DNA of 64,000 nt from Nipponacmea schrenckii (Eukaryota; Mollusca; Gastropoda; Lottiidae): assembly GCA_030562195.1 (NCBI GenBank), contig CM060199.1, positions 18,186,338-18,250,337 on the forward strand. Reading direction: 5' to 3'. A program made the translations under genes and the position numbers. Shown piece by piece: positions 15,876 to 59,500 of the stretch. How positions within the stretch are numbered: the stretch's first letter is position 1; every line of letters starts with the position of its first letter. The notes under the pieces are model-generated. The model made no database searches, was not told where the DNA came from, and saw only the letters and a list, made by a program, of their open reading frames with translations.

Positions 15876-15924
15876 TGGAGTATTCATTCAAAAATCATAT
15901 ATATGAGTTCAAAATAGAACTTTG

Positions 15925-22934: not shown

Positions 22935-22939
22935 GAAAA

Positions 22940-32460: not shown

Positions 32461-33510
32461 TAAGCCCACCAATATATTGGGGGCGCATATTGTGATCGAC
32501 CCGGCGGTCCGTCGGTCTGTAGGTCTGTCGGTCTGTTCAAATTTATCTTGTGCTCACTCTACAGGCTACAATTCTTTCTGCATTCTTTTGATTTTTATTT
32601 TGTGGGTCAATGTCATTATGAAGATGATCCCTATTGATTTTGGTGATGATCGTATAATTTTTCACCGAAATATTGCATCTGACTTAGTGGTTTTCACTCC
32701 ATTAGCAATAGGGTGCAACTCGTGCTCACTCTACAGGCTTCAGTTCTTTATGGATTCTTTTGATTTTTATTTTGTGGGTCAATGTCATAATGAAGATGAT
32801 CCATATCGATTTTGGTGAAGATCGGATAATTTTTCACCGAAATATTGCATCTGACTTAGTGGTTTTCTCGTGCTCACTCTACAGGCTACAATTCTTTATG
32901 GATTCTTTTGATTTTTATATAGTGGGTCAATGTCATTATGAAGATGATCCCTGTTGATTTTGGTGATGATCGGATAATTTTTCACCAAAATAATGCATCA
33001 GACTTAGTGGTTTTCTCGTGCTCACTCTTTATGGATTCTTTTGATTTTTATTTTGTGGGTCAATGTCATTATGAAGATGATCCCTATCGATTGTGGTGAT
33101 GATCGGATAATTTTTCACCGAAATATTGACTTAATGGTTTTCACTCCATTAGCTATAGGGTGCAACTTGTGCTCACTCTACAGGCTTTAGTTCTTTATGG
33201 ATATTTTTGATTTTTTTTTTGTGGGTCTGTATCATTATAAAGATAATCCCTATTGATTTTCCTGATGAATATGTAATTTCTCACCTAAATATCGTATTTA
33301 AAATCTGCAACACATAGACATGCCTCAAAATATTGTTTAAGAATTAACACGAGAAAAAAACCTTAGAATGAAGCAATCCAGATAAATCTTCTTAAAATCC
33401 CATATAGATTCAACATGAACCAAATGTGAATGGACAACAAACAATGCCTTGTCCTTAATATCAAAGCTGCTGGTGGGCGTATGTCACCTTGCTTCGCAAG
33501 GCTATCTTTC
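32461..33510 (+). mobile_element. Tandem-cored element A (TAAGCCCAC ... GTGGGCGTA)
   Basis: The head TAAGCCCACC with a short hairpin (GCCCACC ... GGGGGC) is followed by a GGTC/TGTC microsatellite-like run at 32503-32535. About five ~150-base tandem units follow (TGCTCACTCT at 32551, 32723, 32871, 33019, 33170). The tail has GTGGGCGTA at 33473-33481 and a hairpin CCTTGCTTCGCAAGG at 33487-33501, then CTATCTTT. The layout of flank, microsatellite, tandem core and 3' hairpin resembles the pearl/Helentron-related elements of bivalves. No protein is encoded. Confidence 0.8.
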
Positions 33511-33514
33511 ATTT

Positions 33515-34230
33515 TGTCATAGACTCTTTAGTTGCTTTGTTGCAAATCAGTCATTTACGCAGCACAAAATCAAACATTCCAAGCCCGAAACTGGGTTATT
33601 CTTTACCAGTTACCTATAGCCACTGATAACCATCGAATGTTGGTATTATAACTGTCAAAAATTTGTCAGAGAAGAGGTAAGAGTCAGTAACTTTTGAACT
33701 TCAGCTATGCGTTTATATGTGCGTAGTTACACTAAACATATAACGCATGAACGGGTGCTTCTATATACTGGAGAAAAAAAGTATTAAAAGACACATAAAA
33801 AATTGACAGGTGAACATCGATTTAATATTTCAATTCTTAGCATTGGAAGGTTGATGATAGTGATATAAACATGCATTTATGCACAAAGCCGGTTTCTTTT
33901 TACATTCAGCGCAAAAATAACGCGACATGGCTTGGTGAGACTTTGCCTTTTCTCAGTTTGTGGTATTGGTGCAATCACTCACATAATTCATATAATTTAA
34001 TGCCATATTTATGTAGTTTATTTTTGATATACTGTCTGAACATCAATTGACCTCGCCGCAATACCATCTCGATTTTGTGTGGGAAATTGTATCCATAACT
34101 GAATTGAAACAGTACTGAGTGAACTTTGTATATTCTGTCATCTGCTGGTTTCGCATCATTTGCAAAATGCCAGGACCTCAGAAGAAGTTGGAAGCGGTTT
34201 CTACCTATAATACCACGAAAAAAACTGATT
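33515..34230. other. No gene recognised
   Basis: AT-rich intergenic sequence without supported features. Confidence 0.4.
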
Positions 34231-34236
34231 TATGCC

Positions 34237-34940
34237 TATTAACGAGAAACTATTCAACATGATTCTATCATCTGGGAATGTCCCAGTTTACCAATATATT
34301 CACCAAACTTTCGGTAAGAAACAGGTCATAGAATGACCCAGGGATATCATCGCCAGTGTCAACGCTAAGTCCAGATGTTTCACGAAAATCAAAGATTGGG
34401 GGGTCTACTGGAACATCAGTCCAAATCCTTTCAAGATTATCACAATTCCGTGAAGGCTGGCCACCATTAACTACCGGCAATGAATTCTGTAGCCTATCAC
34501 CATCTGGCCTAATAGTTTCGCAACTAACAGGCATCTGCGTGAGCCCCTTGTTCTGACAGTGCCACGACCAAGCCATGGAAACGAACTACCACCTACCACG
34601 CTCTCTTGCCCGAACTCTGATCAGGGGTGTTGAAATCTGTCCTCGTCACTGAAACATAAAAAAGATCTATAACAGAAGGAAAATAGTAATTCTACCACGG
34701 TGTAATAGTTTCAGATATACAAGAAATAAATTGATAATTACCTAATGTATTTGAGTCAGATGATACTATCAGGTTTCCATCTCTCTCAAAAAATGTTGAC
34801 ATGTCATCATCGGTATTTGAATTTTCACGTTCGATGTTGTGTCTGTAGATTCGCTTGAACTGGAGCTATCACTATCAGCTATCACTATCAGCAAGTGTCG
34901 GATCATCTTCCATTTCTTGGTTTCCTAATCGATTGCATTA
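34237..34940 (-). pseudogene. piggyBac-like transposase N-terminal fragment, minus strand
   Basis: On the minus strand, the frame 34576-34268 ends with PPIFDFRETSGL and DDIPGSFYDLFLTESLVNILV, which resembles the start of the piggyBac (PGBD4-like) transposase domain. Upstream, an acidic Ser/Asp-rich stretch starting ATGGAAGATGATCC lies near 34910, with a donor (GTAATT) near 34742 and an acceptor (TTTATGTTTCAG) near 34650, so two exons are possible. Stops and frame breaks occur. The catalytic part is absent, because at 34237-34290 the sequence switches to about 50 bases matching the LINE at 28690-28740. Confidence 0.55.
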
Positions 34941-34944
34941 AAAT

Positions 34945-35770
34945 ATCTGCCACTAAATACGTTTGCGTTCGCAGATTGTAATGTTGATGCGCAGGCGCCG
35001 TAAATGACGTACCAGAGGTTTATTGGTTCATTCTAGCAATCGAGAAAGTTATTTTTATTTTTTTAAATTTTGTACTTTGGAAATAGAAATACGATATAAA
35101 ATATAATGTTTTTCTTGATTGCGGGTCTACGAGTCAATATGGCAACGTAAATGCCTATTCAGCCTATGCTGTTGCACTGATAACAGCCATGTAGTTTCGA
35201 TGCTGTGATACGACTCGTATAATACAAGTTGCAACTGATCTGCCTATCGGCAGTGAACGTGTTCGTACACAACAAATCGTCAATGTGTGACATGTCCATT
35301 AGTATCAAAAAGTGTACACAGTTTCTCTATAGGTTTTTTATACGTGAACTATATTATTATTACACTTTTATTGGGAATACCCAATAATTAATAGAGATTT
35401 CGCTTGCAGTATTTAGCATAAAACACATTAAGTTCTACGTTCGTCCAGAACACATCAATTTGTCGACATACGTCATCATACAATGGAAATCATTTGACTA
35501 TTTAAAGCACGTTACTCGTAGGTTAGAAATAGGTATTGAGTATAACAGCATACTTGTTTACAAGTAAGAAATATAACCGTTTTTTTTTCATACGCCAATA
35601 TACGCTTGCCTTTGGTGTGACAGGGCCGTTATAGTATATCTGTAAGTGTTCCACACGTTCTCTATAATAGGTTAATGCAATAGCTGATAGCTCACCGTTT
35701 TTTGGAGAAAGTTTGATACACTATCACTTAATACTGATCATTTGGGAATAAAATGCGCAATTAATATTGT
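34945..35770. other. No gene; OAS-3 far upstream
   Basis: No coding signal. A palindrome TATTGGGAATACCCAATA lies near 35370. Confidence 0.4.
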
Positions 35771-35774
35771 TAAT

Positions 35775-35978
35775 AGGGAATTCCACATTAGGTATTAATA
35801 GCTATTATTAATCGGAAATTCCACTTGAAGTATTTATAGCTGTTATATAATTGCATTAGGCCTACATGTTGACATTTCCTTTATATCCTCTGAGTTGTAA
35901 ATTTATTCATGTTGATTGTTGGTATATTAAGAGAAAATACTATCCTTGCTCGAATCTAAAGTATACACTACTAGTAGG
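35775..35978 (+). promoter_or_regulatory. OAS-3 upstream region: two kappaB-like sites and putative non-coding exon 1
   Basis: AGGGAATTCC at 35775-35784 and CGGAAATTCC at 35813-35822 each fit GGGRNWYYCC at nine of ten. Both are followed by CCAC(A/T)TT-like words, and the first by AGGTATTAATAG exactly as in OAS-1. The leader ends CACTACTAGTAG then GTAAGACATTT at 35978, the donor shared with OAS-1 and OAS-2. The acceptor for the ATG exon is CTCTACTTCAG at 36353-36363. Confidence 0.52.
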
Positions 35979-36372
35979 TAAGACATTTTTTTTCTATTTT
36001 AATTTGCAAATAATTGAATCATTAATTCCCCCTACCTAAATCGCCAACCTATCTAAAAAAAAAGAAAGAGCAAGGTTCTTTGCTTGTCCAGAACACATCA
36101 CACGCTAACATTTATAATATAAAGACATAAACTGCCTTTATGAGTTCATAAGTTACTTTTAATGTATTTTCAGTGTAGTTTAGAACTTATTTGCCAAAAT
36201 CATACACGATTCAAAACTTTTCGTAGATCACGTGGGTTTAAACCAAATTTGGTAAAAAATGTCTGTTGGTTACATACTTTTCTGGAATATTCTACATATA
36301 CATTACTAGTTATGTGGACTTTCCGGGAGGTGAATTGGGTTTAACTCCTTTTCTCTACTTCAGATATAAATC

Positions 36373-39300
36373 ATGGAGAACTTTTTACCCGGAATCTGTG
36401 ATGGTGATACTTTGTGTTATTTTATACACCATAATTTGCACGCACCAAGGATTTACAAAGCTGGAATGAACCAGGCCGTTGATAGTATTGTTCGTCACAT
36501 GCAACGTATTCCCGAATACAGCTTCAAAGAGACTGTTAAGGTAAATCACATCCTTAAATAACTGACAGTGTAAATGGCATTGTTATGTAATTTGGCTAAA
36601 CTCAATTATTATAAAAATAATTAGTTCGCCATTTGAGTGGCATATTGAGTTCTATCAGCCATGTATTATATATGTCAAACAATTTGACAACATGCCCGAT
36701 ATATAAGGCACGCCCATCAGGCATTTGGTGTGCAGACGTCGAACTAGAGTATGGTGTGCAACCCATCAACATAGAGTATATTGCCACCTACATGGATGTC
36801 AACAAACTAAAATCTAGCCATCTTAGACCTTGATCATTATATATAATCAAAATGTCACAATAATTGGTTAAACAAAATGAGGATTTTTCGTGAAATATAT
36901 TCGTGTTCATTGTATGATTCTGGTAGCAGGTCTATAATAAGTCATTATTGCTCGTGAAATTTTGCCAATTACATATTTATACATTATATGAAATGCACAG
37001 GCTTAATTTTGTTGATAATTTAAAAAATGCGAGATTATATTTTATCTTATGATTATACAAGAATGGGAATCTTTTGCGGCTAATTTCATAAACTACTTTT
37101 CCAGATTGATATGATTTGATTTCATGGAAATAGTAACCCCGGAGGAAAACACATCTATGAATGTTTCATTACTGGAAGTACATAAATGCAAAAGCTGTGT
37201 GCATGTTGAGGCATTACTTATAAGTTTATGATAGAAATTTCTTACCTATGCTCTTTATACGCCCACATTATTCGATGAACAGTTCTTGAGTTATTGCACT
37301 TGACTTAGCCGAAACGCGTCAAAATTGGCTTGTGAACGCGATAGAGACTACAGTTTTCATCAGATTTGAATGAAACTTGCTGTGATCTTTTATATTGATG
37401 AGATCTTGGACAAGTTCGAAATTGGCGATTTTTCGATGAATGGTTTTTGAGTTATTGCACTTGACTTAGCCAAAACGCGTCAAAATTGACTTGTGAACGC
37501 GAATGACACTTTCTGTGAACATTTATATTTGATGGGATCTTGGACAAGTTCGAAATTGGCGATTTTTCGATGAATGGTTTTTGAGTTATTGCACTTGACG
37601 ATTTTTGGGTGAACGTTATTTGAGTTAGTGGCCTTGACAAGGTCAAATTGCGTCGAAAAAAAGTTGTGAACACGATCGAGACAACAGTTTTCATCTGATT
37701 GGAATGAAATTTGGTGTGATCATTGAAGTTGATGTCATCTTGGTCAAGTTCGAAATTGACATTTCAATATACTGTTTTTGAGTTATTGCACTTGACTTAG
37801 TCAAAACGCGGCTTGTGATTGCGATAGACAATACAGTTTTCATCTGGTTTTAATGAAATTTGGTGTGAACATTTATATTGACGAGAACTTTGATTAGACC
37901 TAAATAATCTTAGAGTTTTTGCCTGTGTTAAAACAGAAAATATATTTTAAAGTGGGCGTATCTTGCTAGGCAACCACTTGTTATTGTTTGAAATACAGTG
38001 TTGGCTAGTTTTAGGTTTTGTTGGTTTCACTCGAAGTTTTGATTATCGATGTTGACAGTCACAGGCCTTGATATCAAATGACAGGCGGTGGTGGTGGTAA
38101 ATAACATCCTTGCCAGCTTAAGCTGATATCAATGAATAAGTAGATTTTTGTGGTCGTTAGTAGTGGATAAGAATCAATAGGATGATTTGGAAACTATTGT
38201 TATGGTGATTTGAGATATTGTAAGATCTGGTTGGAACGAATGTAATTGCGATGACTGATAGGCGTTGCTTACCTGGCTTTTATAGTGGACGGAATAATTT
38301 AGTATAATTAGAGCATTATAGCTTTAAAAGTTATGATAATGTTTTCTTCGTTGATAAATCATACATATATACGTTTAGACACATAGCTATTCTTGCCATC
38401 TAGCTAGTCGTTTAATAACAAGCAACGGTATGTTCAATTGGACGTCTGTAAGTCATGTAGATAGTTGCAGATCTACAATCTCTGGTAACGAAAACATTGA
38501 TATGATTGTAGCTCTTATAAAATTTTGGAGAAGTATCGTTTATTACTCTGTAGTGGTACAATATGATTATAACATAGTTTTTACATTATAAAACCGCAGA
38601 AAACTGTTTTTCGGTAGAATTTTATAAACATTAGCTTCAAAATATCACTTTTTACCATGCGGCCCTAATTGTGTATTACTGACAAGTGTGTAAATATTTC
38701 AGTCTGGATCTCAAGGTAAAGGAACAACAGCTGGCAACAATGCAGATGTTGATTTAGTGATATTTCTTAATGGCTATGAAACTATGGAAGAATTAATCGC
38801 TGCCAAACCAAACATCATAGCTGATTTTTCGACTCACATGAATAAATTTGATCGATCTGTATTTAGTGCCTGTATAGAGATTCGACAAAACGAATATTTA
38901 GGCCAGTATAGATTAAAGCATATAGCAACGAACAGATTCGTGGAAGTAGATGTTTTACCAGCTATTGATATCGTCGAACAATGTACGTTTTTTAATGACT
39001 TAATAATTTATATTACCAGAAATGGTTACTCGTGCAAAAGAACATTCAACGTTGATGAAGATTTTAAATTGAGTACTTATCAAATTATAAATAAAAAATT
39101 ATTTCTACAGAGCATTTACAAATGAATGTTGAAATCACACGAATACATGTTGGTTTTACCTATTGGACGTTTTTTTATATTAATATGATGATGCTATTTA
39201 TTTATTTATTTTAGTAGGTGGTTCTGTTGCCAATGTTTTAGAAGAAATGAGAAATAAAAGACGAGAAGTTAGAGGACACTATTCTGTATGCTTCTGTAAG

Positions 39301-42300
39301 GAGCAATTGATGATAAAAAGTAAACCAACAAAAATAAAAGACTTGATCAGATTGGTGAAATATTGGAAAAATGTATGTACAATGTATTTCTTATCTAATG
39401 CATGTTTGATTTTGACGAGAGTTTTCGAAATCACCCTCATGTAGTGTAATTTCTGCACGTATAGTCGCAAAATCAGTTTCTTTGTTAGAATATACATATA
39501 GCATTATGAAGACAAAATTGCAGTCTGTAAATATGAAATGTTGATGTTATTAAAGGAATAATTATATGAATGAATGGAAATACAATTATTTAAAGTCTCA
39601 AATTTGTTCAATATATATAAAAAATACTTTATTCATCAGTTTAGATTTTTAGATTAAAATAGAATCTCTATATATCCCGATATAAAACTAAGAAATTATT
39701 GTAACACGCCGCTAGACTTAATTTGATTATAGATGGATTCTGTTTTATAGTTTTTATCAGGAAAGTCCACTGATAAACAAGGACTGGCAAAGTTTGTACA
39801 TTTGTAATTTTGGACATCCTTATGTTGAAGATGTCAACATTACGTCAACATGTCAACAATGCGCCAAGATTTCAATATGACTTCTGATTGGCTGAAAAGT
39901 ATCGATCGATAGAAAATATACACCGGATAATTGCCGGCGGAAATAATTGGCCGAGATTATCTAACATATTTAATATTTGGTGATTCATACGGCCGCCAAA
40001 ATCACACTTTCGCCCATCTGGTAGTAAACCTTAAATATACATGTATTTTTTTATTACTTAATTCTACATGGTTTTTAAAGCTTTTCGCAATGTGTTATTT
40101 AATTTATTTAATCTAGAGCAACAATTTACCAATAAGATCCTACTGTTGTGAAGTGGTTTGTCTGTATGTCCATAATACTTTCCCTCCTCAACATAAAACA
40201 AATTTTAACATGAAGGAGGGTTTTAATCGAGTGCTGAAATTTCTTATAGATACTGAAACACCGCATACCGTAATTGATCCAAAGTATTATTACAACACAA
40301 GAGACTGGTAAGTTAACAGATTTTTTTAAATATGTGTTTTACAAAGCACCGAACCCCCTTGTCCGTAAAGCGTATTACTTTTTCGAATCTTAATCTATAA
40401 TTATAATGAACAGTAAATAAAAATGCATGTCGCTGGATAGCAGAAAATTTAAAATTCTTCCTTACAGCTTGGACGCTTTGAAAAATGTATATTTCTTAAA
40501 AAGCTCTTGTAAGAAAATAGCCATTTTTCTTATTCTATTCTTTTTTAGTGTGAAACAATTCCTTTAAGTTGCCCTCTTACGGACCCTTGTTTACATCAGA
40601 AATAACAATGTTAATTGGCTACCATTGTATTTGAGCTGAAGTGCCTTTGTGACTAGCCTATATTTTTCTACAGGTGTAAGGTGGCCGACCGCCGACCTCA
40701 GGTTCACCTAAAACATGTATTGTGTCCCCAAATGACAACTCTTGATCAGCCTATTTGAAAGGGATTGGGTTATCATACATGAGGTAATTTAGTCAATTAA
40801 CAGTTATAGGGGTCCGTGAGAGAAGCAAACACTATTAATATTTCTATTATATTCTTCTATCTTTTTATATTCTCTTTTATTCTTTTTATATATTGTGTAT
40901 TATGTTTTTGTTTGGGGTTGGCTTTATTAGACGGTAACTAGCTGATTTTAGTCAGTTCATTCGAGGATACCGAAGAGCTCAGTTGTCGTCTGGTATTGCC
41001 AACCACAGCTTACCTATATGTTAAAGTAATAAACCACCTTTAAAACATCGGAAGTACTTGAAGTCATTTCAATAAAAGAACAACACAACGTGACGAAGTC
41101 CTACACTTGCCGAATTGGTGCCTTAAGACCAGGATTCGGAACAGGAAACAAAGAAACATAAAGAATCTCTGCCAGAAGAAATCAAGAAGGATCATACCGA
41201 ATAGTAAGTAGCTCTTTTTCTGTTGAACGTCAATATGGGTGAAGTGTTTTTCCAATCACTTTCTAATCAATTAACTACACTCACAGACACGATATCGGCA
41301 CAGGGGGTTAACCATGTCATCACTCCATTTGAGGGGGATCCAACTAAATTCAGAGACTGGATTAAATCCATTGAAAAATACGCTGTTCTCGCAAAAGTGG
41401 ACAATACGAAATTGAAACTAATAGCATTTCAAACATCAAAAGGAATCGTGTCGAATTTTATACAAAGATTCCTTGAATCTAATCCGGATTCGGATTATAT
41501 GCATTTGAAACAAGAGCTTTCAACCCGAATTAGCGAGGTCGTCGACCCTCTGCATGCCTTGGCTCTTCCTCGGAAGGTCAGACAGAACCAAAATGAAAAT
41601 GTACAGTGCTTTGGCGAAAGGTTGCTGTTATTGGCCACAGAGGCATATACAGGTCCGTCAACCTTAGAGGTGGAAAGACAATTAATAGGGTTTTTTGTAG
41701 ATGGGCTTAGGGAAAACTATCTGAAATGAAGAATTATGAGAGAGAATCCCAAAACGCTTCAAGAGGCTGTAACGTCAGCAATGACGGAACAGAATCTAAG
41801 GAAGCGATTCCAACTAAGGACAGGAAGTGGTGCCATCACATGTTCTGACAATTTTCCGGAACCCATGGAAGTCGATCACTTCTGCAAAAACGATGCCACA
41901 AGTGCCACAAGCTCGGGCATCTTAGTAGGGACTGTCGTACGCGTAGCATTAACGCAGTAGAACATTCAAGACCGCAGATCAAATGTTGGAACTGCGGGGG
42001 ACTAGGGCATATCAGTAGGAATTGTAGGAAACCCAAACAAACCATTAACCAAAACCGACAGGGAAACTAAAAAGCTCTCCTTGCTCTACAGCCGGCGAGG
42101 AGGGTGATGACGTACAAAATTTTTCTTACCAAATATCCAATCATTGCAAATAAATTTGTCACGAAATCCCAGCTCTTGTATATTAAAATTTGAAAAGCAA
42201 ACATATAGATCTTTAGTTGACACTGGTGCAGAAGTTTCACTAATGCACAGTAGAGTTTACAAAAATTTGAAATTCAAACCAAAATTAAAGAAAGAAAAAA

Positions 42301-45300
42301 TTACATTATATTCCGTGAATAACAAACCTATTGACATGGAAGGCAGTGCTATATTTAATTTTAAATTGGGGGTAAAAAAGTTTCACATAAATTTTACGTT
42401 GTTTCCTCGAGTAATAGAAACGTAATTCTTGGCAGGGACTTTTTGGTAGAAAAAAAAAATAAGGTTGTACTATGACTTAAAAAGCATGAGGTATGAGGGT
42501 ACATATATTCCCCTCGAAGAACTAGTTTTAAAACCTCAAACATTCAATATAGGCATGGCTAAGGTAAAAGGCAGTAACGCAGCTACACTCCTTATAGAGA
42601 ACTACGATAAGGGGTTTATTGGAGGCCAACCAGGGTTAATGGTTGTAAACTCCATTGTACCGGTTAACAATGGCGATAAGGTTAACGAGACAAACAAAAC
42701 AATTAGATTGAAACGAGGGTGTATCGTTGGAATGTCCCACACAATAGACGATGGGCAGATTTGTTCTATTGAATCGACGCAAACAAGTGGTCAGATGTTA
42801 GACATTGATGACGTATTTAAGGACATAGACTGTGACACTAGACACAAAGACAATTTATTAAAATTTTTGACGAGACATAAAGACATTTTTGCTCCAAGCG
42901 ACACTGAACTTGGACAGACTGACACAGTTAAAATGACAATAGACGTAGGTTCGAATGACCCGATCAAATTAAGACCTTATAGAACTCAACTTACCAAAAG
43001 AGAGGTTGTAGGTAAGGCAATAGATTACATGTTGGATGCTAGAATCATCCGACGTTCCAGTTCTCCCTACAGCTTCCCTGTCGTAATAGTGGATAAGAAA
43101 GATGGATCCAAGCGCTTCTGTGTTGATTACAGAGCCTTGAATAAGATCATCAAAATTAATTCTCATCCACTTCCCTTGATTGGCGATGTATTGGCATTAC
43201 TTTTAATTCCGCTAAATTCTTTACAACACTCGATTTATGAGCTGGATTCTGGCAATTAAGGTTGAAGAAGAAGATAAAGAAAAAACAGCCTTTGTATGTC
43301 ACAAAGGACTTTACGAATTTAACGTCATGCCCTTCGGTATATCAAACAGTCCTGGAATTTTTCAACAGCTAATGTCCATAGTACTTGATGGACTAGACAA
43401 ATTCGCAGTCGCCTATCTTGACGACAATTTAATATTTTCAAAATCACCAGAAGAACATTTAGACATTGTTTTCAACAGACTGAGAGAACACAACCTCAGA
43501 TTCTGATGCCAGATCCAGATAAAGTAATTGCCATACGTGGAATGTCTGTACCGACATCCGTCAAAGAGGTAAGATCATTTATAGGAGCCATGTCATACTA
43601 TCGACGCATTATACCAAACATGTCAAAAATCGCGGAACCATTAATAGACCTGACTAAGAAATACGCGAAGTTCAATTGGACTGACAAATGTCAACAAGCT
43701 TTTGACTATCTTAAAGACAGCTTGACGACTATACCTATGCTAGGATATCCGAATTCTGACCTGCCGTATGTACTCTACACTAACGCAAGTGAAACATGTA
43801 TTGGAGCTTGTCTAACACAAGTTGTAAACGGAATAGAGGTACCAATCTATTTTCTAAGTCACAGATTAGGTAAGACTCAATGTAAGTGGGCAGTGTGTGA
43901 GAAAGAAGCTTACGCTATTTCCTATAGTCTCCAAAAATTAGACTATTATCTCCACAATGCACAGTTCATAATTAGAACTGATCACATACCACTTAAATAC
44001 CTCCTTGAGTCACCCATGCAGAACAAAATATATCAGGTTATAACTGTAAAATTGAGTACATACCTGGCGAGACAAACACAGTAGCGGATATGTTATCACG
44101 CATGCCACCTGACCCGACAGACAAAGGACAAAAAGACAATTTAGAGGACAATGAACCCGAAATAAGTAATAACAGTTTTAAAATAAATGTACTTAATAGT
44201 AATAAGTTTAATCCAGGTGACTGTGCTGATTATGACGGTGATAATTCAATAGACTTGTCAAGCGACACCGAGAATAATGTTAGTTTAACAAATATAGACA
44301 TGATAAAAGAACAGGATAAAGACAAAGACATTCAACTGGTCAAGCAAAGGTTAACCCAAAATAAAAATCAATCAAACACTAAAAATAAGTATATAATAAT
44401 AGAAGATCTATTTTATTTTATATCCGACCAAGACGGTGAACCTCAAACCAGGTTATATATACCCAAACAATTAAAGAAAGAAGTAATCAAACAGTATCAT
44501 GATTTTAATTCACACCCAGGTATTGATAAGACTTATGCTACTATAAAGGTTAAGTATTTCTGGCCGAAAATGTACAAAGAAATTTATGAATATGTAGACA
44601 CATGTGTTACATGTCAAATGCGATCCACTGCGCGAAATAAATCAGACACTATCGAAACCGGACTACCTCCTTATCCTATGGCAAAATTAAGCTTGGATCT
44701 ATCAGGACCATATCCCACTACGCTGTCAGGTAACAAATACATAATAAGTTTTGTCTGCTGGTATTCAGACTGGGTAGAGTCTTTCCCTTTCAAAACAGCA
44801 GAAAATGTTGCACACTTAATAATAGACGAGATATTTCCAAGATTTGGCTGTCCTTTAGCAATTGTTACAGATAATGGCACAGAAAACGAAAATAGAATTG
44901 CAAGAGAAACTTTAGACAAACTTAATATCAAACATATATTAACTTCATATTATTCGCCAAAATCAAATGCCAGAGTAGAAAGAAATCATCGTACTCTGCA
45001 CGACATGTTAGCAAAACGTGTAAACTCAAACCATTCAACTTGGGATATATTTCTTAATCAATGTTTAAGTGCGATAAGATTTAATGTCAGTAAAACAACC
45101 AAACAATCTCCATTTTCTTTACTTTATTCACGTGACCCTATATTACCCTTAGATAACATCCTTTAAACCAAGAACTAAATATTATGGCGAAGACCACCAC
45201 TTAAACATAAAAGTTTATGCTGTCATCCGAGAATTACGGATGACGTATGTCAAAAGACATTTTGTAGACATTGATTATGTCCTTTTAGATAGACGAATAT

Positions 45301-48300
45301 TGATTTATCATCTGACCCGATATATTTTCAGGTCCAAGATGAAGGCAGTTCTTATAATAGTCCTGGGCTGCCTTGTAATACTCCCAATGACTGACGGTAT
45401 TCTGACATATAAAAACACTTTTTTCAGGCCAGTAAATAGAATTGCTACTAGTCGCTCCAGATGGTTGCTAACCTTAGTACATGACTTAAGACCTTATTTT
45501 GATTTCCTAGACAACTTATCTAACGACATTGGACGTACATTATGGACAGTAGACACTATAATAGCCAATTACTATACCCAAGATAATCACTCAAACGAAT
45601 ATGGACTTACTTTTGAAAAAAATGAAAATTGAAATACTCTCGCTGAGATTCGAAATTGAAAATCTATTGAAAACGACTAATGAATATAAAGACCTATCGA
45701 TTAACAAAAGACATAAACGTGCCTTACTACCCTTTGTTGGGGATGTACTTTCTTGGCTCTTTGGCACAGTCAGTTCGTCTGACTTAAATAAAATTAAGGG
45801 TAACATAAATAAATTAGCCTCCAACCAAAAAGCAATCTATCATGTTGTTTCGGAATGCTTATCGATACTGAATGTATCGCGATTGCAAATTTCAAATAAT
45901 CGAAATCAATTTAATGCACTGTCAGACGGAATACGAAAATTAGATTTAAAACTTGGAAATACCGTTGCACAATTTAAGAAGCAAATATTGAAATTGGAAG
46001 GTTTTGTACACCTTTTCTTAAGAACTGAATTTGTTCTTGACGATATCAAATGATGATTTTAAATGCTATTTCATACTCGAAAAATACTAAAATTCTTTTA
46101 AGTATGCTTACACTTGGTCATCTCGATCCATCAGTTATAATACCAGAAAAATTAAGAAAATTACTTTTAGAAATCCAAGAAAAATTACCACCTAGTATAA
46201 AGTTACCAGCAAATCCTAAAACAAATATTTGGCATTATTATAAGATCCTCACATGTGTATCATTTATGGAGGACCGTAAAATTATAATTATTTTGAACAT
46301 TCCTTTACTTGACAATGATGACCATTATATAATTTATAAAGTACATTCCCTCCCAGTTCCAATGACAACCAATCATGTTTTATCCAAATCTACGGGTACA
46401 TCACGATTTGTTGCGCGGTGCAATTTGGAAACGACTACGCTTGCTGTTAGTGTTGACAGTACGAAATACGCCTTGATCACGGACAATGAATCTAAACAAT
46501 GCACTAACCCTCTTATGAACTTCTGTAAAATCAAAAGTCCGATTTTTCCAATTAACTTGAGTGAACTATGTGTTATGGCATTATTTTCTAAAAACGAGGC
46601 AAAGATTTCAAGTAGATGTGACATTTCTGTAAGACCCAATGAAATTCTACCGACTAGCGAATATTTTACAAATGGTTATTGGGCTATAGTTATACGTAAA
46701 CAAACACGATTTTCAATTGCTTGTCAGGATACCCACTTCAAACATTCATCTATTGTTGTCAAACCACCTATTAAAATCATTCACCTTAAACCAACATGTA
46801 AAGCGGTGAACGACCATTACCGTCTCATAACTCAAATGAAAGTACTTATTTCGATGACACTTCGTTCAAACATCTATTGTCGACTTTTAATGAATCAATT
46901 ATTGATATTTGGAAACCTATTACCGATCCTTTTGGCAATTACACACTAACTTAATTACCTCTGTGTCGTATGTGCTGTGATTATTCTCATCCTTTATATA
47001 TTGTTCAAATTATTTGTTCTGAAAAAATTCACACTCTTCACATCTCCATGGAGACGTTCAAATAAAAAGGGCGAAAGCTCTGGTAAAATCCCTAATGATC
47101 AAAATACAGAAGCAATACCAATGATAACGATGACGCAACCAAGCGCCCCAACTGCTGATCGCATGTATCCTGAAATACCTGAAACTAATACATTACATTC
47201 TCTCCTCAACCTTGCTCATCAACAGAGAGACAATCAGAAATCAGAAAGCAGACTTTGAATCTAAATTATCCATAAAAGTCACCATTCACCCAAATATAGA
47301 CACCGCTAATCCAGTATGAGTTATATTCCAGCACGATATTCCAGCAGCTACAACCTGATTTACATGGAATATTACATATCCAGCAAACATACACAGAATG
47401 GTATTTAAGATATCCGATCAAAGATATACAACGGTACCTAAGATATGGTGAAAGGAATAATGGTATCCAAGATGAATACTCCTTACAGTATGGTGGATAT
47501 CCGATCACAGATGTAAAATGGTATCCAAAGATATGGTGGATATTCCATGAATACGAATCATCTCCAAGATATGGTGGATATCCGATCACTAACACTATAT
47601 GGTACTGATGTTATGCGGGACACATTACTATGGACAACGCACAGAAACTATTAACTAAGAATGGTAGATATCCGACCACCAACATGAACTAATGACCAAG
47701 ACATGGTAAACAAACCAATGGCCCATGGTGGAACGCATAGCGAAGACTGGATACCCAATACTTACGATGAACAAAGTGACCAATTACAATGGGAATGATG
47801 AATTGTGCAGGAAGTTAACCTGGCCATCTATTGTGTGATTAAGGACTATTAACGTTATAAGAACTCTTATTGTGTGTTTTTAATTATACATGTTTCACAC
47901 TTGACACAGGGGCGAGTATAAGAAAATAGCCATTTTTCTTATTCTATTCTTTTTAGTGTGAAACAATTCCTTTAAGTTGCCCTCTTACGGACCCTTGTTT
48001 ACATCAGAAATAACAATGTTAATTGGCTACCATTGTATTTGAGCTGAAGTGCCTTTGTGACTAGCCAATATATTTGTACAGGTGTAAGGTGGCCGACCGC
48101 CGACCTCAGGTTCACCTAAAACATGTATTGTGTCCCCAAATGACAACCCTTGACCAGCCTATTTGAAGAATGGGTTATTATACATGAGGTAATATAGTCA
48201 ATTAACAGTTATAGGGGTCCGTGAGAGAAGCAAACACTATTAATATTTCTATTATATTCTTCTATCTTTTTATATTCTCTTTTATTCTTTTTATATATTG

Positions 48301-49284: not shown

Positions 49285-52121
49285 GTTTTGGAGTCAGACT
49301 TTTGTCGAAAACCAAAATATCAGCGATTTTCAATTTGAAAACTCGAGTAGAACTTCAAAGTAGTTTTTCTCGAAAGTAAAAAAAAATCGAAAATCGTTTT
49401 CTGCCTTACGTAAAAATCGATTATCTTACGTTTGGTACAAAAATTATATCGATAGGATCAAAATTGGTAGAAATGGATTATCTTTCATTTTATAAAAAAA
49501 AATTGTCGATACGATCAAAACTCGCCGAGTTATGGTCATTTTAGGGTGGGGGTGGGGGGTCGGCCACCAGCCTATATAGTCCTTTAGTGGTTTGTTGCAG
49601 CTTACCAAAAATTGGAATTGCGGAAACTCGGAAACTACTGGGGCTGTAAAATTGAAATTTGAAATGCAGGTAGCCAACTATCTGAAGTTATTCCCTGCAA
49701 AATGTCAGCTCCATACCTTGAAAACTCTGGCAGTTACAGCGCTTTTGGTGTGCAGCTTTTTCGCAAACCAAAATGCCAGCGATTCTCAACTTGCAATTCA
49801 GGTAGAATTTCAAAACCGTTTTTCTCAAAAAAGTGAAAAAAAGTCGAAAAATAAGTTTCTGCCTGAAAAAGACGTAGAAATGGATTATCTTTCATTTTAT
49901 AAAAAAATTTTGTCGATACGATCAAAACTCGCCGAGTTATGGTCATTTTAGGGTGGGGGTGGGGGGTCGGCCACCAGCCTATATAGTGGTTTGTTGCAGC
50001 TTACCAAATCTTGGAACTGCGGAAACTCGGAAACTACTGGGGCTGTAAAGTTGAAATTTGAAATGCAGGTAGCCAACTATCTGAAGTTATTCCCTGCAAA
50101 ATTTCAGGTCCATACCTTGAAAACTCTGGCAGTTACAGCGCTTTTGGTGTGCAGCTTTTTCCCAAACCAAAATACCAGCGATTTTCAACTTGAAATTCGG
50201 GTAGAACTTCAAAACCGTTTTTCTCAAAAAAGTGAAAAAAAGTCGAAAATAAGTTTCTGCCTGAAAAAGACGTAGAAATGGATTATCTTTCATTTTATAA
50301 AAAAATTTTGTCGATACGATCAAAACTCGCCGAGTTATGGTCATTTTGGGGTGGGGGTGGGGGGTCGGCCACCAGCCTATATAGTCCTATAGTGGTTTGT
50401 TGCAGCTTACCAAATCTTGGAACTGCGGAAACTCGGAAACTACTGGGGCTGTAAAGTTGAAATTTGAAATGCAGGTAGCCAACTATCTGAAGTTATTCCC
50501 TGCAAAATTTCAGGTCCATACCTTGAAAACTCTGGCAGTTACAGCGCTTTTGGTGTGCAGCTTTTTCCCAAACCAAAATACCAGCGATTTTCAACTTGAA
50601 ATTCGGGTAGAACTTCAAAACCGTTTTTCTCAAAAAAGTGAAAAAAAGTCGAAAATAAGTTTCTGCCTGAAAAAGACGTAGAAATGGATTATCTTTCATT
50701 TTATAAAAAAATTTTGTCGATACGATCAAAACTCGCCGAGTTATGGTCATTTTGGGGTGGGGGTGGGGGGTCGGCCACCAGCCTATATAGTCCTATAGTG
50801 GTTTGTTGCAGCTTACCAAATCTTGGAACTGCGGAAACTCGGAAACTACTGGGGCTGTAAAGTTGAAATTTGAAATGCAGGTAGCCAACTATCTGAAGTT
50901 ATTCCCTGCAAAATTTCAGGTCCATACCTTGAAAACTCTGGCAGTTACAGCGCTTTTGGTGTGCAGCTTTTTCCCAAACCAAAATACCAGCGATTTTCAA
51001 CTTGAAATTCGGGTAGAACTTCAAAACCGTTTTTCTCAAAAAAGTGAAAAAAAGTCGAAAATAAGTTTCTGCCTGAAAAAGACGTAGAAATGGATTATCT
51101 TTCATTTTATAAAAAAAAATTTTTTCGATACGATCAAAACTCGCCGAGTTATGGTCATTTTGGGGTGGGGGTGGGGGGTCGGCCACCAGCCTATATAGTC
51201 CTATAGTGGTTTGTTGCAGCTTACCAAATCTTGGAACTGCGGAAACTCGGAAACTACTGGGGCTGTAAAGTTGAAATTTGAAATGCAGGTAGCCAACTAT
51301 CTGAAGTTATTCCCTGCAAAATTTCAGGTCCATACCTTGAAAACTCTGGCAGTTACAGCGCTTTTGGTGTGCAGCTTTTTCCCAAACCAAAATACCAGCG
51401 ATTTTCAACTTGAAATTCGGGTAGAACTTCAAAACCGTTTTTCTCAAAAAAGTGAAAAAAAGTCGAAAATAAGTTTCTGCCTGAAAAAGACGTAGAAATG
51501 GATTATCTTTCATTTTATAAAAAAATTTTGTCGATACGATCAAAACTCGCCGAGTTATGGTCATTTTGGGGTGGGGGTGGGGGGGCGGCCACCCGCCTAT
51601 ATAGTCCTATAGTGGTTTGTTGCAGCAAACTGCGGAAACTCGGAAACTACTGGGGCTGTAAAGTTGAAATTTGAAATGCAGGTAGCCAACTATCTGAAGT
51701 TATTCCCTGCAAAATTTCAGGTCCATACCTTGAAAACTCTGGCAGTTACAGCGCTTTTGGTGTGCAGCTTTTTCCCAAACCAAAATACCAGCGATTTTCA
51801 ACTTGAAATTCGGGTAGAACTTCAAAACCGTTTTTCTCAAAAAAGTGAAAAAAAGTCGAAAATAAGTTTCTGCCTGAAAAAGACGTAGAAATGGATTATC
51901 TTTCATTTTATAAAAAAATTTTGTCGATACGATCAAAACTCGCCGAGTTATGGTCATTTTGGGGTGGGGGTGGGGGGTCGGCCACCAGCCTATATAGTCC
52001 TATAGTGGTTTGTTGCAGCTTACCAAATCTTGGAACTGCGGAAACTCGGAAACTACTGGGGCTGTAAAGTTGAAATTTGAAATGCAGGTAGCCAACTATC
52101 TGAAGTTATTCCCTGCAAAAT
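49285..52121. repeat. Satellite array, ~406-bp unit
   Basis: Unit starts (GTGGTTTGTTGCAG) fall at 49587, 49986, 50392, 50798, 51206, 51612 and 52005, spacings of 399, 406, 406, 408, 406 and 393. The last unit is cut at 52121 by a T-run. A diverged partial unit precedes from about 49285. Units 2-6 look almost identical. Each has a G-run block GGGGTGGGGGTGGGGGG. The frames of 74-95 codons on both strands repeat with the units and are not genes. Confidence 0.97.
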
Positions 52122-53720: not shown

Positions 53721-53823
53721 AGATATAGACCTCAAACCCCTCGGTTAATATTCGAAAATAAAATGTCTCGGGCAAGCCCTCGACATTTTTTTTCGAATAT
53801 TAACCTCGTATCGGTCTATATCT
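53721..53823. repeat. Inverted repeat around AATATTCGAA
   Basis: AGATATAGACC ... CTCGGTTAATATTCGAAAA is inverted as TTTTCGAATATTAACCTCG ... GGTCTATATCT, arms of about 40 bases with mismatches and a loop with a smaller palindrome (CTCGGGCAAGCCCTCG). A small foldback element is likely. Confidence 0.75.
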
Positions 53824-53829
53824 TATACA

Positions 53830-54980
53830 TATTCATCATTGAACTTACCTGGTGTCATAAAGAAACAGAATCCCTTACAATCCGGAAATCTCACAACGCT
53901 AAGTCATCTTTGAAAAACGCTTACTCCATTTATTGAGCGTTTTGCAATAATCAAATGCATCTTTATGGATAATTACTTAGTTTTTTCGATATTTATTTCT
54001 TTTTTGTTATTTATGGCATTTAATCATTTAACTTCACCAAGTATTATGTCAGAGAATAAGTATAATCTTTTATGTTAGTCCTTCAGACCCACATCACTGA
54101 TAGAATCACTGATAGGCGCTTTTCGTGAACAAATAACGATAATTTTGCTTGGGTCTCACTATAGCTTTGTTTAGACCTAGATAGGCCCTCGACTAACTGT
54201 ATTGCCATTATCTTTTGTTTATTTCTGACCTAATACTATAATAGTGCTTATAATCAAACATAGTATACTTCAAATGTAGGTACCTATAATTTCATGTATT
54301 GTTTTCAAACAATTTCCTATACATTTAGTTTTTGTTATATTTTAATATAGATAATCTCATATTCGCTTTCAATATAAAAGACTAGTCAGGCCTAGAGTAC
54401 CCTGTACTGTACCAGATACCTTCGTCTTGAGTTTTCCTCGCCTGTTTCAATAGACCTACTGACCACGTAACCGATCCGGGGTCGAAGACGAGCTTTCCTT
54501 CTACAATATCTCCAACAGGCTCGTTTGTTGGGTTGAATTCGAATGGACAAAAAAAAAAAAATACGACAGCAATTGAAACTTTCAACGGATTTATTTGTTG
54601 AAACAATTTTGGTGATGTGCAATAAAATGAAAGATTACTTTAATTAAACTTTTGAAGGCTAAGATTTTTTTCTGATAACAATAAAATTGTGAACACTATT
54701 TAAGACTTACTTTTTACTGGACTTTTTTACTAGGGAGAACGCATCTACATGTAATAGGGTACAAAATAATATACACAAAAATCATAGTTACACTATGTAA
54801 AAGCCTAAACAAGATAGCTTATTCAGTAAAACAACGCCGACATGTCGACAGGTAAATAACAAATCACGGTAGCTTACAACAACTATGAATATATGCACGT
54901 GCTTTTCATTATACGGATTATTATAAATAATATTGAAGACTGCTTTCAGGTCACATACACACGGTGCCATTTTATTAATG
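53830..54980. other. No gene recognised
   Basis: AT-rich. The minus-strand frames at 54382-54622 overlap in two registers across an A-run and show no known domain. Confidence 0.4.
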
Positions 54981-54984
54981 TCAC

Positions 54985-55070
54985 ATGATAATGTGGTCGT
55001 ATATTGTCGTCACCTTTGTCCGTCCGTCGGTCCGTTCGAATGTCATTGACATTCATATTCTTTCACAAAT
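54985..55070 (+). repeat. Head fragment of a tandem-cored element
   Basis: GTCGTATATTGTCGTCACC followed by GTCCGTCCGTCGGTCCG matches the head and microsatellite of element C at 57301-57390, but there is no tandem core or tail. Confidence 0.65.
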
Positions 55071-55074
55071 TCAT

Positions 55075-55395
55075 TTAAGATGAAATGGAGTTGTACATCC
55101 TAATCTTCTGCACCTTAAATAAAGACTGGTAGCGACATGCAGTGTGCAGTAATGTAAATTTTGCAAACTATCGAGGGACCTCTAATGAGCAAAGCCTGTA
55201 GCGCCCGGGGCCTATCGACTAAACGCTCTATGTATTTCATGTCATTCCTTCAGACCTGTAAGGGGAAGGTGGGCTAAAAAATTCAAAGGTTAATCTTGAC
55301 CATTGCTGAAATTGAACTCTAGACCCATAGGAGGCTTGCGAGCAAGCCTTTAGCTCAATGAACCACATATTCCTATAGGCGCACTTTTCATATAA
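55075..55395 (-). mobile_element. Degenerate SINE-B copy, minus strand
   Basis: The left end (ATGAAATGGAGTTGTACATCC ... TCTTCTGCACC) is the reverse complement of the SINE-B tail. The right end gives a tRNA-like head on the minus strand (TGGTTCATTGAGCTAAAGGC and GAGTTCAATTTC). Many mutations are present. Confidence 0.65.
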
Positions 55396-55439
55396 ACTGT
55401 CAATGGGATAAGCACATAAATGAGATTGTAACAAATATC

Positions 55440-56490
55440 TGAAAGGCTGTTAATTGTCTTAGAACTGTGAAATACCGTCTTAATAGCCATAGGAAATCAT
55501 TGCAGACTTGTATATTTTATCTTACCTTTCTTCGATTATTGTGATGTTCATATGGGATGGGTGAAACAAAACTAAAAGACTTGTTAGAAAACCTCCAATT
55601 AGGCGCACTCGAGACTATATGAGGTGCTTTTAGGGGTAGCCTACCAGTCACAGATTATTATACTACGAAACAGGTGTAGTAACGTTCAAAAAAGACGACA
55701 TCGCAATAAATTAATCATGATGTATTAAATTTATCACAATGTAACTTCAAATAACCTTTCTTACCTGATACAAATAAATGATAAACCATACAATTTGATA
55801 AATACCAACAATCTAATACAATAAAACTGTAGGACTGAACTATTTTATGGATCTTTCATAATAAAATAACCTATCTGATAAATTAAAAATTCTACCTTCC
55901 ATAAATTCCTTTAAAGCAGCTCTCAAATCAATTAACATCCTAGTACCCACATCCTATTTTTTGGCTCTCGAAAAAATCAAATTCTGCATGCTCGCCTTCG
56001 TCTTTTTTTAGCGACCTTAATGGACACAAATTCCTACATGTTTCGGACAATCCTACCTGCTCTTGTGGTCACATATTCGAAAAATCCTAAGCATTTTTTT
56101 ACCTACATTGCTCGATAAATTCAGATGCACGTAAAACCACTCTCTTTTCTACCTAAAACCTACCGATCTATCAATAAATTTACTTCTTTGAGTTGACCAC
56201 AGGTCAAGCATCATCTTAAATCATGTTCGAGCAAGTCCATAATTTCATTCAAATCAGCAAAATGTCCTGTACAACTTAAACATTCACCCAATTTCACCAG
56301 CACAGAGGTGTAGATAACTTTATAAATATGTTTATTTGTCAAAACGCAAATTTAACTACTTTAATCCAGTATCGTTTGTATTTATTATGTACATATTGTT
56401 AAGGGATAGGGGTTTTATAGGCGAGAGTCTGTTCCCCAATCCGTCCATTTCATTATTATATGAATAAAAAAATTGTTTACAAAAAATGCC
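55440..56490 (+). mobile_element. I/Nimb-like LINE 3' fragment
   Basis: Broken frames give an RT C-terminal region: YRLNSHRKSLQT, LPFFDYCDV, LLENLQLGALETI, then HARLRLFFSDLNGHKF and a CSCGH Cys motif near 56060-56080. The end, CTGTTCCCCAATCCGTCC then AATAAAAAAATTGTTTAC and A-rich sequence, matches the minus-strand end at 26690-26795. Stops and shifts are frequent, so it is dead. Confidence 0.75.
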
Positions 56491-56527
56491 CTTGTATATC
56501 CAAATCACATGTAAATGGACTCTTATC

Positions 56528-59500
56528 TATGGTGGCCCATGGCTATCACTCAGTTTTTTCAACATGGCCCTACTTTATTTTCTAACTAATTCATTCTATT
56601 TATTAAATTATTTATAAATAACACAAAAAAGAATAAAATAAAATAATAGTAATTGAAAAAAAAAAGAATAAAATAAAATAAAAAGTAATTGAAAAAAAAA
56701 AATGAAACAAGTTAAAATGATTTTGAAATAATTTTGAAAGTAAAATAAATTAAAAGAAAACATTCTGATACTAAAAGTAAAACTGATTTCTTTTAAAGAT
56801 TTTTTTAATCTATTTCATTCAAATATTATTTTAAAATTGAAATGAAAGTTAGGTGAATTTAAAATGATTTTAAAAGTGAAATAAATTAAATTAAAAAATC
56901 TGAAGAGCCTAGAGCTATCATAGTATACCATCATGCATTGTATGGTCGATGTGGATTGGGGACGATTTGACATAAAGGGAAATCACTCCGAAATTGATAC
57001 GGTAAGATTTTTGTCTCTTTAATTTTCAGGAAAAACTTGATTATATTTTGATAATTTTCCTGGGAGGCAGCAGTCAGTTGTTTACTAGTCTAGAATTTGA
57101 ATTGAAGGTCCCATTATTTGAGAGTTGGTCTGAACGTGACCTTTGAACCTTGGCTGTTATTAATATTATAATTCTCATTCTATTGCTATTAAAGACAAAA
57201 CAACCCACAGACATCATTTATTATTATAACACAAATTCGATAAAAAAAAGTAAATCATATTATATAAAACATCTCCTTTTTATACGCCCACATGAAATGG
57301 GGGGCGTATATTGTCGTCACCCACATCCGTCCGTCCGTCCGTCCGTCCGTCCGTCCGTCCGTCCGTCCGTCGGTCCGTCCGTCCGTCCGTCCGTCCACAA
57401 TTGCTCGTAAACACTCTACACGGTGTAATTCTTGACGGATTTAGATGAAACTTAATATGAGTGTTTATGATCACGCAAGGATGAACCCTATTGAAAATCA
57501 GCGAAATCGGAAAAAAATTAGTATGAGTTTGTGCCCTTGTTCTTGAATGGCTCGTAAACACTCTACAACGTGCAATTCTTGACCGATTTTGATGAAACTT
57601 GGTGTGAGAGTATGTTATAACTCAAGGATAAACCCTATCGAAAATCAGCGAAATCGAAAAACATTTAGTATGAGTTATTGCCCTTGTTCTTGAAAACGCG
57701 TTCAATTTTAGCTTGTAAACACTCTTGAGAGAACAATTCTTAATGGATTTTGATGAAACTTGGCTTGAGTATTTGTTATCACCCAAGGATGAAACCTATT
57801 GAAAACCAGTAAAATCGAAAAAAAATTTAATATCAGTTATTGCCCTTGTTTTTGAAAACGCGTTCAATTTTTAGCTTGTAAACACTCTACAAAGCACAGT
57901 TATTGACCGATTTTGACGAAACTTGCTGAAATTGTTTAATATCACCCAAGAATGAACCCTTTTGAAAATAGCACATATCGAACTATATTTAATAGGAATT
58001 ATTGCCCTTGTTCTATAAAATGTGTTGGATTTTTGCCTTGTAAACACTCTACAAGTCACAATTCTTGAGCGATTTTGACATAATTTGGCATGAGTATTTG
58101 TAATCACCTAAGGATGAACCCTATTGAAATTCAGTTAAATCGAAAAATATTTAGTATCAGTTATTGCCCTTGTGTTTGAAAACGCGTTCAATTTTAGCTT
58201 GTAAGCAATCTAGAAAGAATAATTCTTAATGGATTTTGATAAAACTTGGCTTGAGTATTTGTTTTTACCCAACGATGAACCTTATTGAAAATCAAATAAA
58301 TCGAAATATATTTAGTGTCAGTTATTGCCCTTGTGTTTGAAAACGGGTTTAACTTTTTGGCTAATAAACACTCTAGAAGGTACAATTCATGACCAATGTT
58401 GACAAAACTCACTGAAATTGTTGGATATCGCAAGGGATGAGCCTAATTGAAAATTAAAAATATCAAAATATATCTAATATGAATTATTGCCCTTGTTCTT
58501 TTAAACGCGTTCAATTTTTGTCTCGTAAACACTCTACATGGCACAATTCTTGATGGATTTCTATGAAACTTGGTGTGAGAGTGTGTTATAACTCAAGGAT
58601 GAACCCTATTGAAAATCAGCGAAATCGAAAAAATTTTTAGTATGAGTTACTGCCCTTGTTTTTGAAAACGCATTCAATTTTAGCTTGTAAACACTCTAGA
58701 AAGAACTATTCTGAATGGATTTTGATTTACTTTGGCTTGAGTATTTGTTTTTACCCAAGGATGAACCCTATTATAAATCAAATAAATAGAAATATATTTA
58801 GTGTCAGTTATAGCCCTTGTTTTTGAAAACGCGTTCAATTTTAGCTTGTAAACACTCTAGAAAGAACAATTTTTAATGGATTTTGATGTAACTTGGCTGG
58901 AGTATTTGTTGTCTCCCAAGGATGAACCCTATTGAAAATCGAAAAATATTTAGTACAAGTTATTGACCTTGTTTTTGAAAACGCGTTCAATTTAACTCGT
59001 AAACAATCTAGAAAGAACAATTTTGAATGGATTTTGATGAAACTTGGCTTTAGTATTTGTTTTCTCACAAGGATAAACCCTATTGAAAATCAGATAAATC
59101 GAAAAATATTTAGTGTCAGTTATTGCGCCTGTTTTCAAAAACGCTTTCAACTTTTGGCTTGTGAACACTCTAAACATTCCTTTTTGACAAAACTCGCTGA
59201 AATTGTTTAATATCAACCAAGGATGAGCCTTATTAAGAATTAAAAATATCAAAATATTATTAAGGGTGAACCCTATTGCAAATCATAAAAATACCCAAAA
59301 ATATTTAATGAGTTGTTATTAGGTACAATTCTTGACAGTTTTTAATGAAACTAGAGACCCTAGAAAAAAATAGGTTGGAAGGTTGAATATTTCATTCCAC
59401 TTATTGTAACCTTACTGAAAAGTTTTTATTTTAAATAAATGCTGCCAGTGGGCGTATATTACCTTGCCTGGCAAGCTATCTTTTTCGTTTCTCGTTACTT

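What the first reader, a model, noticed from the sequence alone, without database searches (positions are those of the whole stretch)
32461..59480. Three elements share ends but carry unrelated tandem cores
Elements at 32461-33510, 37258-37985 and 57283-59480 all begin TAMGCCCAC and end GTGGGCGTA plus a small 3' hairpin (two followed by CTATCTTT). Their ~150-162-base tandem units are different sequences. Two have a GTCC-type microsatellite between head and core. This is modular: one mobilisation frame with interchangeable satellites, as expected of rolling-circle pearl-like or Helentron-related elements that capture and amplify satellite DNA.
Basis: partly seen in the sequence, partly recalled or inferred. 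Interest (0 to 1): 0.8.

Follow-up and report, generated by a model that had tools for sequence, protein, structure and literature searches.

The report
Limpet rolling-circle transposons carrying one satellite
Three look-alike DNA pieces in a limpet genome belong to a large known class of jumping elements that carry short repeat arrays, and their seemingly different repeats turn out to be old variants of one repeat that travels with the element rather than interchangeable cargo.

Summary
The three elements are real. Each starts with a ~11-nt subterminal repeat (TATAMGCCCAC) and ends with its complement plus a small 3' hairpin. They are non-autonomous Helentrons (HINEs): 5' subTIR, complementary IR, GTCC-type microsatellite, ~160-bp array, 3' subTIR, palindrome. 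The middle element has lost IR and microsatellite. The genome is a lottiid limpet's (COI 87-88% to Lottia/Nipponacmea). It holds ~2000 matches to one head pattern, ~6700 to a generic head and ~8100 tails, none in reversed controls; heads and tails pair on one strand. The youngest-looking element (57279-59480) sits in another repeat with 39 uninterrupted paralogues; the empty site is a T-run. Frame and satellite diverged together. Oyster Cg_HINE elements already show this architecture and (group 1) this co-divergence, so this is a new member of a known kind. No autonomous partner was found: none of 10 Rep-helicase-endonuclease loci read has matching ends of its own.

The parts
32457..33506 (+). 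Element E1 (rare H subtype; head TATAAGCCCACCAATATATTGGGGGCGCATA), complete HINE; exact ends within the T-runs inferred
   Evidence: sequence; H-type head pattern 45 matches at <=3 mismatches genome-wide; 78% paralogous uninterrupted sites
32459..32489 (+). E1 5' subTIR plus complementary IR
   Evidence: sequence; folds as a hairpin (z -1.73)
32505..32536 (+). E1 GTCC/GTCT microsatellite
   Evidence: TRF
32545..33300 (+). E1 tandem core, ~148-172-bp units
   Evidence: TRF rows 32550-33128; homologous to the E3 core, z 14.4
33473..33506 (+). E1 3' subTIR, palindrome, CTATC end
   Evidence: hairpin of 6 pairs
37254..37980 (+). Element E2 (B subtype), head truncated: subTIR fused directly to the core, IR and microsatellite missing
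   Evidence: a B-type copy with IR and microsatellite at C8:26.5 Mb; fused junction occurs once in the genome at <=3 mismatches; B-type tail 2029 matches
37267..37905 (+). E2 tandem core
   Evidence: homologous to the E3 core, z 24.5
37952..37980 (+). E2 3' subTIR and palindrome (TTGCTAGGCAA)
57279..59480 (+). Element E3 (A subtype), complete HINE inserted in another repeat
   Evidence: 39 uninterrupted paralogous sites, best 100% over 233 nt; 97.3-98.2% to 7 of 11 compared A copies over ~450 nt, 91.8-96.2% to the other 4
57281..57310 (+). E3 5' subTIR and IR hairpin
   Evidence: z -5.01, 0 of 200 shuffles as stable
57326..57396 (+). E3 (TCCG)n microsatellite, 17.8 units
   Evidence: TRF
57399..59330 (+). 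E3 tandem core, ~10 units of ~161 bp plus degenerate end
   Evidence: TRF rows 57399-59172; the stretch to 59330 read by eye
59448..59480 (+). E3 3' subTIR, palindrome and CTATC terminus
   Evidence: 8125 genome matches of the tail at <=2 mismatches, 0 in control

Best explanation
The three are HINEs, non-autonomous rolling-circle transposons of the Helentron group, in a lottiid limpet. An ancestral HINE already carried the ~160-bp satellite array directly after its 5' hairpin and microsatellite. It then radiated into at least eight subfamilies, in which the end sequences and the array changed together. Copies are presumably made in trans by a Helentron Rep-helicase-endonuclease that nicks at the 5' T-run, displaces a single strand up to the 3' palindrome and joins it into a T-rich site; unit number changes by unequal exchange or replication slippage. 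Shown: architecture, copy number, head-tail pairing, core homology, shared array phase, co-variation of head and core, T-run empty site. Inferred: the enzymology, the identity of the partner, and the age order.
For: Counts with zero controls; head-tail pairing; core homology; array phase 42 of 44; head-core concordance 44 of 44 classed on both sides, of 52, Mantel r 0.546, 0 of 5000 permutations as high; empty sites; Rep/PIF1/endonuclease ORFs in the genome; definitions and oyster parallels (PMC4067079: abstract, part 1 of 3 of the Results and passages; PMC7492417: abstract, Results, part 1 of the Discussion).
Against: No Helentron with these ends was found in the 10 loci read, so trans-mobilisation is by analogy. 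Unsupervised clustering of heads and of cores agrees only moderately (ARI 0.25-0.51); the 44-of-44 classes used words chosen after seeing the sequences. E1 aligns beyond all shuffles to cores A, C, E and G but not directly to B or F, and only marginally to D. Two of 24 classed heads with a tail have a tail of another type (L067, L070). Several single hairpins are no better than shuffles. Only 5 of the 10 Helentron ORFs have the S after RG that PMC4067079 gives as diagnostic; the other 5 have A. The sample of heads is 52 places by position on one contig.
Confidence: 0.87

Rival explanations
1. Modular capture: one mobilisation frame repeatedly captures and amplifies unrelated satellites.
For: Shared ends with cores that look different by eye; oyster group 2 elements (Cg_HINE_3 and _6) are reported to have related flanks with unrelated repeats (PMC7492417).
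Against: Cores are homologous, array phase is shared, head and core covary.
Confidence: 0.06
2. Repeated capture of variants of one genomic satellite family: the cores are homologous because they came from the same satellite library, not because the element inherited them.
For: Bivalve satellites of this kind are reported both in elements and as classical arrays (PMC5139131 passages; PMC7492417). Free arrays of this satellite in the limpet were not looked for.
Against: Independent captures would not be expected to begin at the same monomer phase beside the microsatellite in eight subfamilies, nor to match head type one to one.
Confidence: 0.1
3. MITE-like cut-and-paste elements with terminal inverted repeats rather than rolling-circle elements.
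For: Ends are inverted repeats; each of the two occupied sites with a paralogue has three more Ts than the empty one, which could be read as a TTT duplication.
Against: The inverted repeats are subterminal, the 3' side has an extra palindrome and the 5' side an internal IR and microsatellite, as HINEs do. At least five Ts precede the head in 8 of 8 copies not selected for Ts (L001-L008) while the CTATC tails read need only two Ts after them, which fits element-borne Ts better than a duplication; exceptions with fewer Ts on the left are E2 (3), J19 (4) and J27 (2).
Confidence: 0.05

Closest known systems
Cg_HINE elements of the Pacific oyster (PMC7492417)
   Same: Same order of parts (subTIR, IR, microsatellite, often GTCY/GTCC/GTCK, 138-181-bp satellite-like repeats, subTIR, palindrome), T-rich insertion sites, no target duplication, array always in one orientation, group 1 elements changing in ends and repeats together, autonomous partner not identified.
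   Different: Another class of mollusc; here all eight sampled subfamilies, not only a group 1, have homologous cores, with the array start in one phase.
Pearl elements of bivalves and elements of like architecture (CvA, CvE, DTC84, MgE)
   Same: Short arrays of ~160-bp satellite-like repeats between short ends (as described in PMC7492417 and PMC5139131).
   Different: Their sequences were not compared here.
DINE-1/INE-1 and HINE-Mo (PMC4067079)
   Same: SubTIRs, 5' IR and microsatellite (DINE-1), 3' palindrome, T-rich sites without target modification.
   Different: DINE-1 core not looked for; palindrome only ~5 nt from the inferred 3' end in E3 and E1, against 8-35 bp in the mite families.

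Membership tests
HINE (Helentron-associated interspersed element) | Subterminal inverted repeats near both ends | tested here: met
   all three elements; genome copies
HINE (Helentron-associated interspersed element) | 5' IR and microsatellite (DINE-1/Cg_HINE type) | tested here: met
   E1 and E3 yes, E2 no; 44 of 57 heads pass a microsatellite rule, 13 do not
HINE (Helentron-associated interspersed element) | 3' palindrome able to form a stem-loop | tested here: met
   8125 tail matches; folding energy of single copies weak (z -0.57, -2.45, -1.07)
HINE (Helentron-associated interspersed element) | Insertion into T-rich site without target-site modification | tested here: met
   E3: empty 7 Ts in 8 of 9 fetched paralogues (8 Ts in one), occupied 5 + 5; E1 5 against 8 in 78% paralogues, aligned by eye; E2 no paralogue. 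T-rich site clear; a TTT duplication is not excluded
HINE (Helentron-associated interspersed element) | No coding capacity | tested here: met
   no open frame of 150 aa or more, stop to stop, inside any of the three
HINE (Helentron-associated interspersed element) | Helentrons (Rep + PIF1 helicase + C-terminal endonuclease) present in the genome | tested here: met
   59 Helitron_like_N matches; Rep motif and, by eye, an endonuclease-like C-terminus in 10 of 10 ORFs read, residue after RG being S in 5 and A in 5; Pfam Rep, PIF1 and Exo_endo_phos over cut-off in 3 of 3 partial ORFs scanned
HINE (Helentron-associated interspersed element) | Termini shared with an autonomous Helentron | tested here: inconclusive
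   none of 10 loci carries these ends in a position fitting its own termini; of the other 49 Rep matches four came as short loci that I did not examine and 45 were not fetched
BIV160/Cg170 satellite family | Two conserved monomer motifs | not tested
   the published consensus is in figures and supplements not held here

The most novel reading that the evidence does not exclude
The satellite is an intrinsic, probably selected part of the element: the first monomer, phase-locked behind the 5' hairpin and microsatellite, has been kept through the radiation of at least eight subfamilies because it helps mobilisation (for example strand initiation, second-strand synthesis or packing on a nucleosome). 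Satellites reported as unrelated in other molluscan HINEs may then be the same ancestral module, diverged past the usual 70% clustering threshold.
Probability: 0.3. Interest if true: 0.55.

Novelty: new member of a known kind. Interest (0 to 1): 0.3.

Why it matters
Whether transposons capture satellites or carry them by descent is an open question for molluscan satellite DNA. This limpet gives a case with thousands of copies, a clean empty site and eight co-diverged subfamilies, pointing to descent. It also warns that 'unrelated' repeats between related flanks can be one satellite past the clustering threshold.

Tried and rejected
Looking for the autonomous partner: a Helitron_like_N search gave 59 matches; ten loci of 16-17.5 kb were read. 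J17 has an E3-type head 2.3 kb before its ORF, but the array after it breaks off without a tail; J19, J21, J27, J29 and J33 hold HINEs or their tails upstream of the ORF. The stretches after the stop codon in two Helentron families do not resemble the HINE tail. A composite element (HINE as a conserved 5' module of the Helentron) was considered, because HINE sequence lies upstream of the ORF on the same strand in 8 of 10 loci and downstream in none; not adopted because the DNA between HINE and the ORF-proximal homology is not alike in J17 and J19, and J25/J33, 131 kb apart, are probably one duplication. The search that would have tested it with J19's upstream DNA did not complete.

Oyster or BIV160 membership of the satellite was not tested; my own recollection of bivalve repeats served only as a lead. 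A viral-contig scan for the E3-type head found nothing. No paper describing these limpet elements turned up among the papers listed by the searches (20 of 211 listed); of these lists I looked at passages in PMC11121367 (a Patella satellite tied to a SINE; Helitrons only in its discussion), PMC10294476 and PMC8268682, none of which describes them. Subscription journals and Repbase are not held.

Full report
Where it is. The window lies at C8:18186338-18250337 of a 399-Mb, 1093-contig assembly. Its mitochondrial COI, read with the invertebrate mitochondrial code, is 87% identical to Lottia goshimai, 88% to a Nipponacmea and 82% to Patelloida saccharinoides; the other listed hits (the best 120 of 7999 are listed) are at most 66%. 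Those three genera belong to Lottiidae. So the host is a lottiid limpet, a gastropod.

What is there. E1, E2 and E3 each begin TATAMGCCCAC and end GTGGGCGTA plus a small palindrome. E1 and E3 have an inner repeat complementary to the head, then a GTCC-type microsatellite, then the array. In E2 the head is fused directly to the array; a relative at C8:26.5 Mb has the missing IR and microsatellite, and E2's fused junction occurs once in the genome at up to 3 mismatches, so it is most simply a local deletion. No element holds an open frame of 150 aa or more.

How common. E3-like head pattern with a free loop of 1-20 bases: 2021 exact matches (nearly all of the 100 listed are E3 type, one is E1 type); the 16-mer TTTTATACGCCCACAT: 6681; tails at up to 2 mismatches: 8125; B-type tails at up to 2 mismatches: 2029; E1-type heads at up to 3 mismatches: 45; every reversed-pattern control gave 0. 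These are somewhat inflated because contig C3 seems to be one sequence twice: its length, 59,252,672, is exactly twice 29,626,336, the offset between paired hits. On C1, 26 of 36 E3-like heads have an exact tail downstream on the same strand within 3.5 kb, all 26 of the A tail type, 19 of them 2.08-2.17 kb away; in the opposite orientation 0; after 500 coordinate shifts mean 0.42, maximum 4. Of the 100 listed generic heads 43 pair, 0 in the opposite orientation, against a shift mean of 1.23 and maximum of 5.

The cores. Local alignment of the whole cores against 60 dinucleotide shuffles each gives z 24.5 (E2 v E3), 14.4 (E1 v E3) and 2.0 (E1 v E2). I sampled heads by position on C1: the first 52 of 6681, plus E1, E2, E3 and two copies found near Helentron loci. 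Of these 57, 44 passed a microsatellite rule and 13 were dropped, E2 among them. Eight subfamilies appear (A-H; A holds E3, B holds E2, H is E1). Of the 28 pairs of representative first monomers, 25 exceed all 200 shuffles; the three that do not all involve E1 (30, 27 and 3 of 200 shuffles reach its score with B, F and D), while E1 does exceed all shuffles with A, C, E and G. The first monomer starts within 8 nt of the same phase as the best-matching other subfamily in 42 of 44; many of the 44 are close copies, so the independent units are the eight subfamilies, whose representatives start within a few columns of one another.

Frame and core go together. Head and core distances correlate (39 distinct of 44; Mantel r 0.546, 0 of 5000 permutations as high), though unsupervised clusters agree only moderately (ARI 0.25-0.51). 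With diagnostic words written after seeing the sequences, 44 of 52 heads could be classed on both sides and all 44 agree; 8 could not be classed on one or both. Three tail types were scored (A, B and a third shared by the remaining classes). Twenty-five of the 52 have a typed tail within 3.5 kb: of the 24 with a classed head, 22 have the tail type of their class and 2 do not (L067, L070); in one of the 22 (L083) the tail is the same one counted for its neighbour L082; the 25th (L055) has an unclassed head. That is descent of the whole element with its satellite, the pattern the oyster authors describe for their group 1 (PMC7492417).

Insertion. E3's flanks, joined, match 39 places across the junction at 81-100% identity (40 matches scored of 144 candidates, the other one being E3's own right flank; three C3 pairs are the doubled contig); the best is 100% over all 233 nt. 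Nine were read: the site is seven Ts in eight and eight Ts in one, against five Ts before and five after the element. E1's best paralogues are only 78% identical and read, as I align them by eye, five Ts against eight; the aligner placed the gap elsewhere. Both give a net gain of three Ts, which fits an element starting TTTATACG and ending CTATC inserted between TT and TT, but a TTT duplication gives the same count. E2 has no paralogue and only three Ts on its left. E3 is 97.3-98.2% identical to seven of eleven compared A copies and 91.8-96.2% to the other four, over about 450 nt; three G copies are 99.3-99.8% alike, other subfamilies less (medians 84-96%), so some subfamilies moved recently.

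Machinery. The genome has 59 Helitron_like_N matches. Ten loci were read: each has an open frame of 2442-2696 aa with a Rep motif ExQxRG followed by S in five and A in five, and an endonuclease-like C-terminus by eye; three partial ORFs scanned have Pfam Rep, PIF1 helicase and endonuclease domains. PMC4067079 gives S as the Helentron and L as the Helitron residue; the fused endonuclease is its other Helentron mark. So they are Helentrons by domain make-up, but none shows the HINE ends at its own termini. The oyster study likewise could not link its HINEs to a partner.

Verdict. HINEs, not found described for this limpet group in the searches, of a kind described in oysters and flies. What is added is that satellites which look unrelated are one satellite, phase-locked and inherited with the ends.

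Noticed in passing
G000 contig C3: Length exactly twice 29,626,336 and repeat hits recur at exactly that offset: the same sequence seems to be held twice, inflating genome-wide counts.
   Followed up: partly
L017-L036 (10 Helentron loci): HINE sequence lies within ~4.6 kb upstream of the Rep-helicase ORF, on its strand, in 8 of 10 loci and downstream in none; post hoc, two of the loci are probably one duplication, and the DNA in between is not alike in J17 and J19.
   Followed up: partly
window 41208-46949: Ty3-like element: integrase domains in one ORF and, downstream, an ORF with a weak Baculovirus F-protein match (E 1.2e-4, below cut-off), suggesting an envelope-bearing retroelement.
   Followed up: partly
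window 49467-52121: 406-bp tandem array, 6.6 copies at 96% matches, no match to the HINE cores in the window BLAST at E 1e-3.
   Followed up: no
window 11383-24151: Further fragments related to the HINE cores at 11383-11435, 12240-12341, 13824-13971 (both strands), 15349-15685, 16870-16971, 17571-17780 (also matching the E3 tail stretch) and 24055-24151.
   Followed up: no
window 24389-24844: Open frame resembling a 2'-5' oligoadenylate synthase exon (recalled resemblance; no Pfam match at E 0.01).
   Followed up: no
L019 (J19), bases ~1837-2330: A C-type HINE with a second, inverted satellite-bearing piece with its own TACGCCCAC/GTGGGCGTA ends nested inside it.
   Followed up: no
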